Of a stretch of DNA of 64,000 nt, positions 8,217-12,380 are shown one piece after another. Within the stretch, counting starts at the first letter, position 1. Every line of letters begins with the position of its first letter. Position numbers and translations under genes: made by a program. Under the pieces are notes generated by a model. The model was not told the DNA's origin and ran no database searches. It was given only the letters and a program-made list of their open reading frames with translations. The stretch comes from Pengzhenrongella sicca (GTDB lineage: Bacteria > Actinomycetota > Actinomycetes > Actinomycetales > Cellulomonadaceae): NCBI RefSeq assembly GCF_017569225.1, contig NZ_CP071868.1, positions 186,001 through 250,000 on the forward strand, written 5' to 3'.

Positions 8217-9488
8217 CTAGTGGGCGGAGGTGCGCAACGCCCGCTCGAGGTCGTCGATCAGGTCCAGCGGGTCCTCCAGACCGACCGAGAGCCGCACGGT
8301 CGTCTCGGCGATCCCCACCGCCGCCCGCCCGGCCGGGCCGAGCTTGCGGTGGGTGGTCGTGGCCGGGTGCGTGACGAGGCTCTTCGCGTCGCCGAGGTTG
8401 TTCGAGATGTCGATCACCTCGAGCGCGTCGAGGAACGCGAACGTGGACTTCTTCGCGACGTCGGCGGGCGTGCCGTCGCCCGCCGCGAGGTTGAACGTCA
8501 CGACCGTGCCGCCGCCGGACATCTGCGCGCGCGCGAGCGCGTGCTGCGGGTGCGAGGCCAGGAACGGGTACCGCACCACCGCGATCGCGGGCTGCGCCTC
8601 GAGCCACTGCGCGAGCTGCAGCGCCGCGGCGGTCTGCGCGCGCACGCGCAGCGACATCGTCTCCAGCCCCTTGAGCAGCACCCAGGCGTTGAACGGGCTG
8701 AGCGACGGCCCGGTGTTGCGCAGGAACGTCTGGACCGGGCCGCGGATGTACTCGCGCGTGCCGAGGATCGCGCCGCCGAGCACGCGGCCCTGACCGTCGA
8801 TGTGCTTGGTCGCCGAGTACACGACGACGTCGGCGCCCTGGGTCAGCGGCTGCTGCAGCACGGGCGTCGCGAACACGTTGTCGAGCACGACGACGGCGCC
8901 CGCGGCGTGCGCGAGCCTGCTCACCGCGGCGACGTCGACGAGGTCCTGCATCGGGTTCGACGGCGTCTCGAAGAACACCACCGTGGCGGGCGTGGCGAGC
9001 GCCGCCTCCCACTGCTCGGGCACGTGCGCGTCGACGTAGTCGGTCCGCACCCCCCACTTGGCGAAGATCTCGTCGAAGATCACCAGGCTCGAGCCGAAGA
9101 GCGCCCGCGCGGCGACGATCCGGTCGCCGGACCGCACGAGCGCCGCGAGCGCGGTGAAGACCGCCGACATCCCGGTCGCCGTGGCGTAGCAGGCCTCGGC
9201 CCCCTCGAGCAGCCGCAGGCGCTCCTCGAACGTCGCGACCGTCGGGTTGCCGTACCGCGAGTACACGAACCGGTCGTTCTCGCCCGCGAACGCCGCCTCG
9301 GCGTCGGCCGCGTGCTCGTACACGTACCCCTGGGTGAGGAACAGCGCCTCGGAGGTCTCGGCGAAGCCGGTGCGCACGTGGCCGCCGCGCACCGCGAGCG
9401 TGTCGGGCCGCAGGCGCGCGACCGGGAGCGAGCCGTCGGTCCACTCGGCCGGGCCGGGGATCGGCGTCGCCGCGGGGTCGCCGGTCAC
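8217..9488 (-). CDS. metZ: O-succinylhomoserine sulfhydrylase
   Basis: A PLP-dependent Cys/Met-metabolism enzyme of 423 residues that makes homocysteine from an acylated homoserine and sulfide. The internal-aldimine lysine is K228 in SATKHIDGQGRVLGG. SRYGNPT at 77-83 and FETPSNPM at 173-180 are classic family motifs. The start is GTG 9488, overlapping the stop of the rhodanese gene as GTGA, so translation is coupled. Together with the upstream SAM-I-type leader this suggests repression when SAM is abundant. The acyl donor (succinyl or acetyl) cannot be decided by eye; MetZ is the closest family. Confidence 0.93.
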   Translation of the reverse strand: MTGDPAATPIPGPAEWTDGSLPVARLRPDTLAVRGGHVRTGFAETSEALFLTQGYVYEHAADAEAAFAGENDRFVYSRYGNPTVATFEERLRLLEGAEACYATATGMSAVFTALAALVRSGDRIVAARALFGSSLVIFDEIFAKWGVRTDYVDAHVPEQWEAALATPATVVFFETPSNPMQDLVDVAAVSRLAHAAGAVVVLDNVFATPVLQQPLTQGADVVVYSATKHIDGQGRVLGGAILGTREYIRGPVQTFLRNTGPSLSPFNAWVLLKGLETMSLRVRAQTAAALQLAQWLEAQPAIAVVRYPFLASHPQHALARAQMSGGGTVVTFNLAAGDGTPADVAKKSTFAFLDALEVIDISNNLGDAKSLVTHPATTTHRKLGPAGRAAVGIAETTVRLSVGLEDPLDLIDDLERALRTSAH

Positions 9489-9976
9489 GACTGGCGCCAG
9501 GGCAGGCCCGCGGCGCGCCAGCCGGCCGCGCCGCGGTGCCCGGCGGCGTCGAGGTCACCCTCGAAGCCCGCGAGGATGTTGTACGCCGGGCCGAGCCCCG
9601 CGGCGGTCGCGGCGCGGGCCGCGGCGACCGACCGGACCCCGGACCGGCACAGGAACACCACCGGGCGGTCGTCGCCCGGCGCGAGCCCGGCGGCCGCGAC
9701 CTGGTCGGCGAACGCCCGGTTCGCCTCGCCGCCCGGGTAGGTCGTCCACTCGACGAGCGCTGCCGACCGGCCGATCGCGGCGAGGTCGGGCCCGCCGACG
9801 AATCGCCACTCCGCCGCCGTGCGCACGTCCACGAGCACCGCTCGCTCGTCGTCCGCGAGCAGGTCCCACGCCTGCTGCGGGGTGAGATCGCCCGCGTACC
9901 CGGTCGTCGGGGCACCTGCCGCCGGGGCACCGGTCGTCGTGGTCTGTCCCGTCGCGGGGTCGGGTGCTGCGCTCAT
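9485..9976 (-). CDS. Rhodanese-like sulfurtransferase domain protein
   Basis: A single rhodanese domain of 163 residues preceded by a Thr/Ala/Gly-rich N-terminal tail of about 30 residues. The active-site loop is CRSGVR with the persulfide-accepting Cys at 110. The family signature VDVRTAAEW lies at 49-57. It is the first gene of the metZ operon. GGAGG precedes ATG 9976 by five bases and lies inside the 3' side of the riboswitch P1 helix. It probably handles sulfane sulfur for the sulfhydrylase step, but its acceptor is unknown. Confidence 0.9.
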   Translation of the reverse strand: MSAAPDPATGQTTTTGAPAAGAPTTGYAGDLTPQQAWDLLADDERAVLVDVRTAAEWRFVGGPDLAAIGRSAALVEWTTYPGGEANRAFADQVAAAGLAPGDDRPVVFLCRSGVRSVAAARAATAAGLGPAYNILAGFEGDLDAAGHRGAAGWRAAGLPWRQS

Positions 9977-9983
9977 GTCGCCT

Positions 9984-10085
9984 CCATCGGTCCTGGCGGT
10001 AGCACCCGCGCCCGCGGCCCGGAGGTCGCGGGGGGTTGCTGCGGCGTCGTCGAGCCAGATCTCTCGGCCGCTCTGGATGGTTTGC
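9984..10085 (-). ncRNA. SAM-I (S-box) riboswitch controlling rhodanese-metZ
   Basis: On the minus strand the leader reads CCATC (10080-10076), AGAGCGG, GAGAGATCTGGCTCG, GACGCCGCAGCAACC, a CCCGCG/CGCGGG hairpin, GGTGCTACCGCC and finally GATGG (9988-9984). This follows the S-box order: P1, AGAG-GG, the P2 core ending GCAACC, P3, the GGTGC P4 region, and closure of P1. CCATC/GATGG forms P1. The GGAGG of the rhodanese start overlaps the 3' strand of P1 by two bases, so ligand-stabilised P1 would occlude initiation (translational control). Identification is by consensus recall, not a covariance search. Confidence 0.78.
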
Positions 10086-10191
10086 CGATGGTACGTCGCC
10101 GCCCGCGACCGAGTCCACCCGGCCGCAGCCCGCCGCGGTGTCCACACCGCGGGACGCCTCGTCCGTCCGCTGAGACGGCAACGGCCGCACG

Positions 10192-10220
10192 TTGACAGGC
10201 CCCCGGGCGTAGCCGATCCT
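10192..10220 (+). promoter_or_regulatory. Promoter for the SAM-IV leader
   Basis: A perfect -35 TTGACA (10192-10197) and a 17-nt spacer precede GATCCT (10215-10220). This would start transcription near 10227, at the first base pair of the downstream riboswitch. The -10 is weak but correctly placed. Confidence 0.6.
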
Positions 10221-10224
10221 CGAA

Positions 10225-10345
10225 CAAGGTCACGAGCACCAGCGTTCAGCCCCGGCTTGCTGGTCGGCAACCCTCCTCCGCGGTGGGGTGCCCCGGGTGA
10301 CGACCTGGTCCCGGCCGTCCGGTCGGGGCAAGCGCGGGACGCCAG
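10225..10345 (+). ncRNA. SAM-IV riboswitch upstream of the cysteine-desulfurase-like gene
   Basis: The plus-strand leader contains in order GGTCACGAG (from 10228), CCCCGGCTTGCTGG, TCGGCAACCCTCC, CGCGGTGGGGTGCCCCGGG and TGACGACC (to 10305). These are the conserved blocks of the actinobacterial SAM-IV class. P1 pairs GGTC 10228-10231 with GACC 10302-10305. A further GC-rich hairpin region extends to about 10345, where the class's extra 3' pseudoknot elements would lie. It ends about 30 nt before the GGAGGA of the next gene. The class assignment rests on remembered consensus. Confidence 0.82.
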
Positions 10346-10378
10346 CCGGCGGTCCCACAGATGTACCGGAGGACCGTC

Positions 10379-11776
10379 ATGACCGTCATCACCGATCGCA
10401 CCGCTCCCGTCCCGAGTCCCCACGCGCCCGTCCCGAGCTCCGATTCGCCGGACGGGCCCGGCGCGCTGCTCGCCGTCGTCGGCGCGAGCACCCAGGTGCC
10501 GCTCATCGACGGCACGAGCCGCGCCTACGCGAACCTGGACTGCGCGGCGAGCGCGCCGGCGCTCGAGTCGGTCGCGGCCCGGGTCGCCGAGGTGCTCCCG
10601 CTGTACGCGAGCGTGCACCGCGGCGCGGGCTACCTGTCCCAGGTCTCGACCTCGCTGTACGAGTCCTCGCGCGCCACGATCGCCGCGTTCGTCGGGGCGC
10701 GCGCCGACGACGTCGCGATCATCACGCGCAACACGACCGACTCCCTGAACCTGCTGGCCGGCTGCGTGCCGGCGGGCGGCCGGGTCCTCGTGCTCGACCT
10801 GGAGCACCACGCCAACCTCCTGCCCTGGCAGCGCGACGGTGCGACCGTCCTCGCGGTCGAGGACACGGTGGCCGGCACGCTCGCGGCGATCGCGCGCGAG
10901 CTCGCGCGCGTGCCGTACGCGCTGGTCGCGACGACGGGCGCCTCCAACGTCACGGGCGAGGCGCTGCCCGTGGCCGACGTCGTCCGCGTCGCGCACGCGG
11001 CCGGCGCCCGCGTCGTGGTCGACGGCGCGCAGCTCGTGCCGCACCGCGGCTTCTCGCTCGCCGGGACCGACGCCGACTACGTCGCGTTCTCCGGGCACAA
11101 GACCTACGCGCCGTTCGGCGCAGGCGTGCTGGTCGGGCGCCGCGACTGGCTCGACGACGGCGCGGCGTACCTCGCGGGCGGCGGCGCGGTGCGCGACGTC
11201 CGCGCCGACCGGACCCTGTGGACGACGGCGCCCGCGCGGCACGAGGCGGGCTCGCCCAACGTCATCGGCGCGATCGCGCTCGCGGCGGCCTGCGAGGCGC
11301 TCGCGGGGCTGCCCGCGGGCGCGCTCGAGGCGCACGAGAGCGCGCTGCGGTCCCGGCTGGTCGACGGCCTCGACGCGATCGACGGCGTCCGGGTGCTCCA
11401 GCTCTGGGCGGACTCGGCCGAGCCGATCGGCGTCGTCACGTTCGACGTCGCGGGGCACGACCCGGGGCTCGTCGCCGCCTACCTCGCGGCCGAGCACGGC
11501 ATCGGGGTCCGGGACGGCCGGTTCTGCGCGCACCCGCTGGTCGCGCGCCTGGGCGTGCCGGCCGGCGCGGTCCGCGCGAGCGTCGGGGTCGGCACCGACG
11601 CCGCGACGGTGGATCGGCTGGTCACCGCGGTGCGCGCGTACCTGGTGGCGGGACCGACCGCGACCTACGCCGTCGTCGATGGCTGCTGGACCGTGGCCGA
11701 CGACCCGCGCCCGCTGCCGCACCTGCACGGCCTCGCGGCGCTGGCCCCGACGGCCGCGGCCTGCGCGCAGCCGTGA
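10379..11776 (+). CDS. Class V aminotransferase, cysteine desulfurase-like
   Basis: A 465-residue PLP enzyme of the SufS/CsdA fold. The PLP lysine is K241 in SGHKTYAPFGAGVLVG, and C383 in RDGRFCAHPL aligns with the persulfide-bearing cysteine of group II cysteine desulfurases. The first 40 residues are Pro/Ser/Asp-rich and probably disordered. ATG 10379 is chosen because GGAGGA lies at 10368-10373; the upstream ATG 10361 would place that site inside the gene. It is controlled by a SAM-IV leader and followed by a serine-acetyltransferase-like gene. A role in cysteine/methionine sulfur recycling therefore seems more likely than general Fe-S assembly. No suf genes are nearby. Confidence 0.85.
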   Translation: MTVITDRTAPVPSPHAPVPSSDSPDGPGALLAVVGASTQVPLIDGTSRAYANLDCAASAPALESVAARVAEVLPLYASVHRGAGYLSQVSTSLYESSRATIAAFVGARADDVAIITRNTTDSLNLLAGCVPAGGRVLVLDLEHHANLLPWQRDGATVLAVEDTVAGTLAAIARELARVPYALVATTGASNVTGEALPVADVVRVAHAAGARVVVDGAQLVPHRGFSLAGTDADYVAFSGHKTYAPFGAGVLVGRRDWLDDGAAYLAGGGAVRDVRADRTLWTTAPARHEAGSPNVIGAIALAAACEALAGLPAGALEAHESALRSRLVDGLDAIDGVRVLQLWADSAEPIGVVTFDVAGHDPGLVAAYLAAEHGIGVRDGRFCAHPLVARLGVPAGAVRASVGVGTDAATVDRLVTAVRAYLVAGPTATYAVVDGCWTVADDPRPLPHLHGLAALAPTAAACAQP

Positions 11777-11912: not shown

Positions 11913-12380
11913 ATGACGCCGGAAAAGCTGTGGTGGTGGTCGGTCCGTCTGCACCGGCGCGGGTTGACGCCGCTCGCGCGCGTGCTCAAGGAGCTCAACT
12001 TCCACCTGTTCCACGCGGTCCTGCCGTACGAGTGCGACATCCAGCCCGACGTCACGCTCTGGCACCGGGGCGTGGGCACCGTGATCCACCCCAACACCCG
12101 GATCGGGCGGCGGGTCACGATCGCGCACGGGGTCACCATCAGCGCGGGCGCGCGTCAGCTCGGGTCCCCGCTGGCGGTGTTCCTCGGCGACGACGTCCTG
12201 GTCGGTGCGGGCGCCCTGATCCTGCCCAAACGCGGGCACGCGCTGCACGTGGGAGCGGGCGCGAAGATCGGGGCGCACGCCGTCGTCGCCTCCGACGTCC
12301 CGCCCGGCGGGATCATGCTTCCGCCGACGGCGTCGCTCCGGGTGGCCGCGGCCGACTCAGCCGGTGACCGTCAGGCCTAG
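11913..12380 (+). CDS. Serine acetyltransferase-like hexapeptide-repeat protein
   Basis: A 155-residue left-handed beta-helix acyltransferase. The hexapeptide repeats are visible from residue 40 onward (VTLWHRGVGTVIHPNTRIGR, then VTIAHGVTISAGAR, DDVLVGAGALILPK and IGAHAVVASDVPPG). It lacks the long N-terminal helical domain of typical CysE, as do many short SAT-like proteins. GAGGAGA precedes ATG 11913. It lies 136 nt after the cysteine-desulfurase-like gene and probably shares the SAM-IV-controlled transcript. It could make O-acetylserine for cysteine synthesis, but sugar or other acceptors are possible. Its last 24 nt overlap the convergent pentapeptide-repeat gene. Confidence 0.78.
   Translation: MTPEKLWWWSVRLHRRGLTPLARVLKELNFHLFHAVLPYECDIQPDVTLWHRGVGTVIHPNTRIGRRVTIAHGVTISAGARQLGSPLAVFLGDDVLVGAGALILPKRGHALHVGAGAKIGAHAVVASDVPPGGIMLPPTASLRVAAADSAGDRQA

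What the first reader, a model, noticed from the sequence alone, without database searches (positions are those of the whole stretch)
9977..10378. Two different SAM riboswitch classes diverge in one intergenic region
The 402-nt gap between the rhodanese-metZ operon and the desulfurase-like gene reads as a SAM-I leader on the minus strand and a SAM-IV leader on the plus strand. Both order-of-motif matches are detailed (S-box AGAG-GG, GCAACC and GGTGC blocks; SAM-IV CCCCGGCTTGCTGG and GGGGTGCCCCGGG blocks). The minus-strand P1 helix overlaps the Shine-Dalgarno, while the plus-strand element follows a TTGACA promoter. Two ligand-identical but structurally unrelated sensors back-to-back would give coordinated control of homocysteine formation and cysteine/sulfur recycling, probably by different mechanisms.
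Basis: partly seen in the sequence, partly recalled or inferred. Interest (0 to 1): 0.8.

Follow-up and report, generated by a model that had tools for sequence, protein, structure and literature searches.

The report
Back-to-back SAM-I and SAM-IV riboswitches
Between two divergent sulfur-metabolism genes sit two related but distinct RNA sensors for the same molecule (SAM), one on each strand, and this arrangement recurs across a bacterial family, so it is real, although each sensor is of a known kind.

Summary
Rfam finds SAM-IV on the plus strand (10228-10340, 110.6 bits, cut-off 38) and SAM-I on the minus strand (10083-9981, 46.7 bits, cut-off 44.4). Divergent SAM-I/SAM-IV pairs at most 300 nt apart occur in 38 of 61 family genomes, 18 of 25 genera. 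Rhodanese-metZ and a SufS-like desulfurase flank 47 of 47 pairs within 5 kb. Both folds show compensatory changes.

"Structurally unrelated" is wrong: both are in Rfam clan CL00012 and are reported to share one ligand-binding pocket (PMC6890682, passages).

These SAM-I copies lack helix P4, and the ribosome-binding site continues the P1 3' strand in 49 of 54. For SAM-IV I propose that the 3' strand of pseudoknot PK-2 competes with an anti-Shine-Dalgarno segment; comparison supports that helix, folding energies do not decide. Both are most likely SAM-OFF translational switches.

The parts are known: SAM-IV before a desulfurase in Streptomyces, the binding site inside SAM-I P1 in Actinobacteria. 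The conserved divergent pairing was not found in my paper searches.

The parts
8217..9488 (-). metZ, O-succinylhomoserine sulfhydrylase
   Evidence: NCBIfam NF005870 721.5 bits (cut-off 618)
9485..9976 (-). rhodanese-domain protein with active-site loop CRSGVRS; overlaps metZ by 4 nt
   Evidence: Pfam PF00581; loop C-R-[SA]-G-x-R-S in 53 of 53 sequences, the window's own included
9981..10083 (-). SAM-I (S-box) aptamer without P4; P1 = 10080-10076 with 9988-9984
   Evidence: Rfam RF00162 46.7 bits; covariation
9981..9985 (-). Shine-Dalgarno GGAGG of the rhodanese gene; its first two bases are in the P1 3' strand
   Evidence: sequence; conserved in 49 of 54
10088..10093 (-). TACCAT, likely -10 element, 4 nt before the SAM-I aptamer
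   Evidence: pattern scan; a TANNNT 4-6 nt upstream in 42 of 47 paired loci
10172..10176 (+). GAGAC, 15 nt before the -35; unidentified DNA site
   Evidence: motif count in relatives; coordinates
10192..10197 (+). TTGACA -35 element of the SAM-IV promoter; GATCCT 17 nt downstream (10215-10220)
   Evidence: sequence; the hexamer recurs in relatives
10228..10340 (+). SAM-IV aptamer
   Evidence: Rfam RF00634 110.6 bits; covariation
10334..10337 (+). 3' strand of PK-2 (GCGG), pairs with the P3 loop CCGC at 10278-10281
   Evidence: helix 6: 98.0% of cells paired over 51 sequences
10336..10356 (+). proposed anti-anti-SD hairpin GGGAC (10336-10340) with GUCCC (10352-10356); shares two bases with PK-2
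10350..10376 (+). proposed SD-blocking helix CGGUCC (10350-10355) with GGACCG (10371-10376), overlapping SD GGAGG 10368-10372
10379..11776 (+). SufS-like cysteine desulfurase (465 aa), PLP motif SGHKTYAP and cysteine motif RDGRFCAH; not the genome's canonical SufS
   Evidence: TIGR01979 276 bits, below cut-off 475.1 (read from 10361); canonical SufS elsewhere at 548.4 bits; motifs in 53 of 53 sequences, own included
11913..12380 (+). CysE/EpsC-like hexapeptide acetyltransferase, possibly in the same transcript
   Evidence: NF041874 57.9 bits, below cut-off 150; PF00132 39.4 bits (both run on 11943-12377)

Best explanation
Two SAM-repressed riboswitches control a divergent pair of sulfur-metabolism transcripts. 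On the minus strand a SAM-I aptamer without P4 governs rhodanese-metZ: when SAM binds, P1 is stabilised and the Shine-Dalgarno, part of which is the 3' strand of P1, is hidden, so translation stops (the sequence layout is shown; SAM binding and switching are inferred). On the plus strand a SAM-IV aptamer governs a SufS-like desulfurase: SAM stabilises PK-2, whose 3' strand is then unavailable to a downstream segment, and the freed segment pairs with the Shine-Dalgarno; without SAM the tail holds the segment and the site is open (helix potential shown by comparison; switching inferred). When SAM is low both sides are made: the desulfurase can release sulfur from cysteine, and MetZ can put sulfide into O-succinylhomoserine to make homocysteine, with the rhodanese as a possible persulfide carrier (inferred). 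The two elements are coordinated by the common ligand rather than by physical coupling (inferred).
For: Rfam matches on both strands. Divergent pair at most 300 nt apart in 38 of 61 family genomes, 18 of 25 genera; about 0.009 expected under uniform placement, an estimate that ignores common descent. Rhodanese and metZ on the SAM-I side in 47 of 47 paired loci; desulfurase in 47 of 47 with the corrected query. SAM-I, 54 sequences: 99.2% of cells paired, 51 cells changed on both sides, 0 of 500 shuffles as high; P2b pair U-A 36 and A-U 18; pseudoknot pair G-C 22 and C-G 19. SAM-IV, 51 sequences: 97.4% paired, 74 cells changed on both sides, 0 of 500. SD directly continues P1 in 49 of 54 (GATGGAGG 42, GATGGGAGG 7), a start codon 4-8 nt later. 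SAM-IV tail-to-segment helix: group-level swap test 17.09 observed, 14.49 +/- 0.59 permuted, 0 of 500, 20 groups, 45 of 51 leaders; the same segment can pair with the SD region in 36 of 45. [quoted passage not shown] No intrinsic-terminator-like site.
Against: SAM-I is close to cut-off here and below it in 19 of 47 paired genomes (scores, pairs). 14 of 61 genomes have no pair within 5 kb, among them 2 of the 4 drawn from the window's own genus. In the shuffle controls one measure, further pair types, is weak for SAM-I (23 of 500 as high) and null for SAM-IV (221 of 500). Aptamer folding energies are no better than shuffles (z -0.20 and -0.25). Holding PK-2 changed computed SD accessibility by more than 0.1 downward in 8 of 51 and upward in 6. 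The shuffled-segment test gave p <= 0.1 for both helices together in 16 of 45. In Streptomyces clavuligerus a SAM-IV leader before a PLP-enzyme gene is reported as a premature transcription unit (PMC8269248, passages), which fits attenuation of transcription there. Five of 54 SAM-I copies do not have the full SD next to P1. No ligand-binding data were available to me.
Confidence: 0.7

Rival explanations
1. Both aptamers are real but the SAM-IV side works mainly by premature transcription termination (Rho-dependent or non-canonical), the SAM-I side by translation.
For: Premature transcription unit at a SAM-IV leader in S. clavuligerus (PMC8269248, passages). A blocked ribosome-binding site could itself expose RNA to Rho (general knowledge).
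Against: No intrinsic-terminator-like site in 9900-10450. The downstream segment matches its own PK-2 tail better than swapped ones and can pair with the SD region in 36 of 45.
Confidence: 0.2
2. The minus-strand match is a degenerate or decayed S-box without ligand binding; only SAM-IV is functional.
For: Score only 2.3 bits over cut-off; P4 absent; 19 of 47 paired genomes below cut-off.
Against: Core residues are invariant in 54 sequences (GCAACC, GGTGC, G11-G13, G19-A20, G36-A37), and P2, P2b and the pseudoknot show compensatory changes.
Confidence: 0.06
3. The divergent layout is a coupled unit, with the two transcripts or promoters influencing each other (shared activator, supercoiling, or antisense).
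For: GAGAC-like words number 62 against 7.9 +/- 2.7 shuffled in 54 SAM-IV upstream regions, 32 of them 19-20 nt before the -35; in tight pairs this lies between the two promoters.
Against: Gaps reach 3369 nt. Each unit also occurs without the other: SAM-I with rhodanese-metZ and no desulfurase match in L130 and L131; 50 of 80 named desulfurase loci without rhodanese-metZ in the flank held.
Confidence: 0.1

Closest known systems
SAM-I (S-box) riboswitch, Rfam RF00162
   Same: P1, P2, P2b, pseudoknot, P3 and the GCAACC and GGUGC core; ribosome-binding site in the 3' side of P1 as described for the class (PMC2258182, passages).
   Different: P4 is missing: 12-14 nt between the GGTGC of P3 and P1; in the cmscan alignment of the window 2 nt stand for 18 model positions.
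SAM-IV riboswitch, Rfam RF00634
   Same: P1, P2, P2b, PK-1, P3, P5 and PK-2 present. Upstream of a cysteine desulfurase as in Streptomyces lividans (PMC8079986, passages).
   Different: Sits back to back with a SAM-I element; a specific expression platform is proposed here.
SAM-I riboswitch of Xanthomonas campestris (PMC7270179, passages)
   Same: SAM-I that acts mainly on translation.
   Different: There an anti-SD hairpin downstream of the aptamer hides the SD; here the SD adjoins P1 itself.
[quoted passage not shown]
   Same: Two SAM classes at one place.
   Different: There a tandem; here the two are on opposite strands and precede different genes.

Membership tests
SAM-IV (RF00634) | covariance-model score above cut-off | tested here: met
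   110.6 bits against 38
SAM-IV (RF00634) | P1, P2, P3, P5 helices | tested here: met
   100% of cells paired in P1, P2, P2b, P3 (mostly invariant); 87.4% in P5, with a change on both sides in 6 of 7 pairs
SAM-IV (RF00634) | PK-1 and PK-2 | tested here: met
   PK-1 paired and invariant in 51 of 51, so uninformative on covariation; PK-2 98.0% of cells paired, two pairs changed on both sides, each in one sequence only
SAM-IV (RF00634) | SAM binding | not testable with these tools
   needs probing or a binding assay
SAM-I (RF00162) | covariance-model score above cut-off | tested here: met
   46.7 bits against 44.4, narrow
SAM-I (RF00162) | P1, P2, P2b, pseudoknot, P3 | tested here: met
   99.2% of cells paired; changes on both sides in P2, P2b and the pseudoknot; P1 and P3 hardly vary
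SAM-I (RF00162) | kink-turn G-A pairs in P2 | tested here: met
   G19, A20, G36, A37 invariant in 54 sequences; that these are the kink-turn bases is from recall
SAM-I (RF00162) | helix P4 | tested here: not met
   junction of 12-14 nt in 54 sequences. So filed as a SAM-I variant without P4; whether other Rfam members also lack it was not tested
SAM-I (RF00162) | SAM binding | not testable with these tools
   needs probing or a binding assay
SufS cysteine desulfurase (TIGR01979) | score above the curated cut-off | tested here: not met
   276 bits against 475.1; a relative with conserved catalytic motifs, not filed as SufS

The most novel reading that the evidence does not exclude
The divergent unit is a SAM-gated sulfur relay, with the desulfurase passing cysteine sulfur through the rhodanese to MetZ, held under two sibling aptamers of one clan. 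In the SAM-IV aptamer the ligand-linked pseudoknot PK-2 itself is the switch strand: its 3' strand competes with an anti-Shine-Dalgarno segment, giving SAM-IV a defined translational expression platform.
Probability: 0.25. Interest if true: 0.65.

Novelty: new variant of a known kind. Interest (0 to 1): 0.42.

Why it matters
Two aptamers with one binding pocket but different peripheries sit 144 nt apart in the same genome and should answer the same metabolite. That is a natural side-by-side test of whether riboswitch classes are tuned differently (affinity, speed, mechanism). The conserved SAM-IV leaders also give a testable expression platform.

Tried and rejected
Minimum-free-energy folding of the aptamers: no better than shuffles (z -0.20, -0.25), so not used as support. 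SD accessibility with PK-2 held or free: undecided (8 down, 6 up, 37 within 0.1, of 51). Pairing of the P3 strand GGGTGCT with the start of the rhodanese reading frame, suggested by one fold of the window: rejected, 5.5 contiguous pairs against 5.34 shuffled, median p 0.785 over 54. Intrinsic terminators: none found. The GAGAC-TTGACA pattern as a genome-wide regulon: 3 sites in the own genome, one of them this locus, and a match in 10 of 19 genomes, so no support. An obligatory relay through MetZ: weakened, because the genome also carries a cystathionine gamma-synthase (644.5 bits, cut-off 513) and an O-acetylhomoserine sulfhydrylase (780.6 bits, cut-off 703).

Errors and omissions of my own. 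In one search the desulfurase query was read one base out of frame; 45 of 47 loci matched all the same, and 47 of 47 with the corrected query. In one search the tail helix was searched only from positions that include PK-2 bases, so its overlap with PK-2 in 45 of 45 is by construction; the swap test is the evidence, and the 36 of 45 has no shuffle control in that call. Six of 51 SAM-IV leaders (L069, L075, L077, L078, L085, L089) were left out because the start codon was over 90 nt from the tail or the SD under 20 nt from it; in L073 the script's start codon looks wrong, but it was kept. The truncated SAM-IV of L124 and a second SAM-IV of L086 were left out of A2. The variable distal part of SAM-I P3 was not scored. 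In one search five of 54 junction lengths (20-27) are regex artefacts from an earlier GGTGC; A1 shows 12-14. Large genome searches used stricter filters that lose weak matches (notes).

Full report
What is there. The gap 9977-10378 separates the rhodanese start codon on the minus strand from the desulfurase start codon on the plus strand. A scan of the window against Rfam gives SAM-IV at 10228-10340 + (110.6 bits, cut-off 38, E 1.6e-19) and SAM-I at 10083-9981 - (46.7 bits, cut-off 44.4, E 1.5e-7); the other three matches in 64 kb are tRNAs. At E <= 0.001 the genome holds two SAM-I elements and one SAM-IV element. The second SAM-I lies before a methylenetetrahydrofolate-reductase-like gene (260.8 bits, below that model's cut-off of 293.7).

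Genes. Minus strand: a rhodanese-domain protein, then metZ (NF005870, 721.5 bits, above cut-off), overlapping by 4 nt. Plus strand: an aminotransferase class V protein related to SufS (276 bits, cut-off 475.1), then a CysE/EpsC-like acetyltransferase. The canonical SufS is elsewhere in the genome (548.4 bits). Over 53 desulfurase and 53 rhodanese sequences, the window's own included, the desulfurase motif RDG[RK]FCAH occurs in 53 of 53 and the rhodanese loop CRSGxRS in 52 of 53, with CRAGNRS in the other.

Conservation. In a draw of 200 family genomes 179 have SAM-IV and 181 have SAM-I at E <= 0.001; those lists of places were capped, so I repeated the search with 61 genomes, where all rows were shown. 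Pairing the hits: 38 of 61 genomes, 18 of 25 genera, have a divergent pair at most 300 nt apart; 47 of 61, 20 of 25 genera, have one within 5 kb; 14 of 61 have none, among them 2 of the 4 genomes of the window's own genus. SAM-I is below the Rfam cut-off in 19 of these 47. Rhodanese and metZ lie on the SAM-I side in 47 of 47, with metZ in two overlapping pieces in L090. The desulfurase was matched in 45 of 47 by the out-of-frame query and in 47 of 47 by the corrected one. In 69 genomes drawn from the order, 5 of them of the family, 33 have SAM-I and 47 have SAM-IV. Read by eye from these lists, divergent pairs outside the family occur in G244, G229 (two) and G253 with gaps of 65-175 nt, and in G243, G258 and G228 with gaps of about 1.6, 4.5 and 8.8 kb. 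Of the short ones, G244 carries the desulfurase on the SAM-IV side and a methionine-synthase-like frame on the other; one of the two in G229 carries rhodanese-metZ, its SAM-IV side cut by the contig end; the other in G229 and the one in G253 have other genes (names by eye).

Named relatives. Rfam at the gathering threshold on 27 of these 80 loci found SAM-IV before the desulfurase in 24, 13 of 13 and 11 of 14; SAM-I reached it in 4 of the 8 loci scanned that have rhodanese-metZ and in 0 of the other 19. So SAM-IV with the desulfurase is widespread, and the SAM-I partner was seen only with rhodanese-metZ there. That the family is Cellulomonadaceae is my inference from these names; the G genomes bear none.

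Structure. Alignments A1 (54 SAM-I) and A2 (51 SAM-IV) were tested against structures written by hand from the Rfam consensus. SAM-I: 99.2% of cells paired, 51 cells changed on both sides, 0 of 500 shuffles as high; pairs with a change on both sides 6, 1 of 500; further pair types 23 of 500; slid structures 27-60% paired. The clearest changes are P2b (U-A 36, A-U 18) and the pseudoknot (G-C 22, C-G 19, unpaired 9). P1 and P3 hardly vary and say nothing either way. SAM-IV: 97.4% paired, 74 cells changed on both sides, 0 of 500, but further pair types 221 of 500; slid structures 33-50%. Related sequences inflate such counts. Pure folding energy does not separate the aptamers from shuffles.

Two features of the SAM-I copies. 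P4 is absent: 12-14 nt join P3 to P1. And the Shine-Dalgarno continues the 3' strand of P1 in 49 of 54, with a start codon 4-8 nt further; the exceptions are L067, L068, L073, L107 and L123. [quoted passage not shown]

SAM-IV platform. The published fold puts the second strand of PK-2 at the 3' end (PMC6890682, passages). Here that strand, GCGG, runs into bases that can pair with a segment before the Shine-Dalgarno: CGGGGAG with CUCCCCG, CGGACCC with GGGUCCG, CGGAG with CUCCG and others; GGGAC with GUCCC in the window. Over 45 of 51 leaders the own segment scores above the mean of swapped ones in 38 of 45, and permuting segments among 20 groups lowers the score (17.09 against 14.49 +/- 0.59, 0 of 500). 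The same segment can pair with the Shine-Dalgarno region in 36 of 45. Against it: the shuffled-segment test reaches p <= 0.1 for both helices in 16 of 45, and computed accessibility does not move consistently. I therefore hold the competing-helix model as likely, not shown.

Promoters. A TANNNT lies 4-6 nt before SAM-I in 42 of 47 loci. TTGACA or a near match precedes SAM-IV in many loci. GAGAC-like words in the 55 nt before it number 62 against 7.9 +/- 2.7 in shuffles over 54 upstream regions, and 32 of these start 19 or 20 nt before it. The protein that would bind there is unknown.

Literature. SAM-IV before a cysteine desulfurase is reported in Streptomyces lividans, which also has a SAM-I elsewhere (PMC8079986, passages). 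In S. clavuligerus a SAM-IV leader before a PLP-enzyme gene is reported as a premature transcription unit (PMC8269248, passages). M. avium has SAM-IV before O-acetylhomoserine sulfhydrylase (PMC3774663, passages). Searches with words for a divergent or back-to-back layout, for these classes in Cellulomonas, and for SAM-I without P4 listed 10, 5, 0, 0 and 0 papers; of those lists I read passages of PMC4239095 only and saw the rest as listings, and nothing seen describes this layout. The library lacks most subscription papers, including Weinberg 2008, so this is not proof of novelty.

Verdict. A real and conserved divergent pair of sibling SAM riboswitches, each of a known class, placed to control sulfur metabolism. 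New as an arrangement as far as I could see, with a variant SAM-I and a testable SAM-IV platform.

Noticed in passing
window 10172-10176 and upstream of SAM-IV in L063-L109: GAGAC-like word 19-20 nt before the -35 of the SAM-IV promoter in 32 of 54 upstream regions, in a few loci with a second copy about 21 nt further; looks like an activator site of unknown owner.
   Followed up: partly
L132 (G051 C1:849258 - and 849559 +), L133 (G041 C2:77978 - and 78257 +), L200 (2875 - and 3080 +): Divergent SAM-IV/SAM-IV pairs; in L132 and L200 one side precedes a flavin-monooxygenase-like frame, judged by eye.
   Followed up: partly
L102-L109, between the two riboswitches: In the 8 loci with gaps of 766 nt or more the gap holds reading frames of 100 aa or more, which differ between genera; a phosphotransferase-like one in L103 and an ATPase-like one in L106 by eye, others may be spurious.
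   Followed up: partly
G014 C1:4647291/4648407, G054 C39:320843/321960, G037 C52:23367/24488: Two SAM-I elements on the same strand about 1.1 kb apart in three genomes of one genus.
   Followed up: no
L134 (own genome C1:55905-56001 -): The second SAM-I of this genome precedes a methylenetetrahydrofolate-reductase-like gene, start codon a few bases after the aptamer.
   Followed up: partly
L090 2366-3558: metZ matches in two overlapping pieces, possibly a frameshift in that assembly.
   Followed up: no
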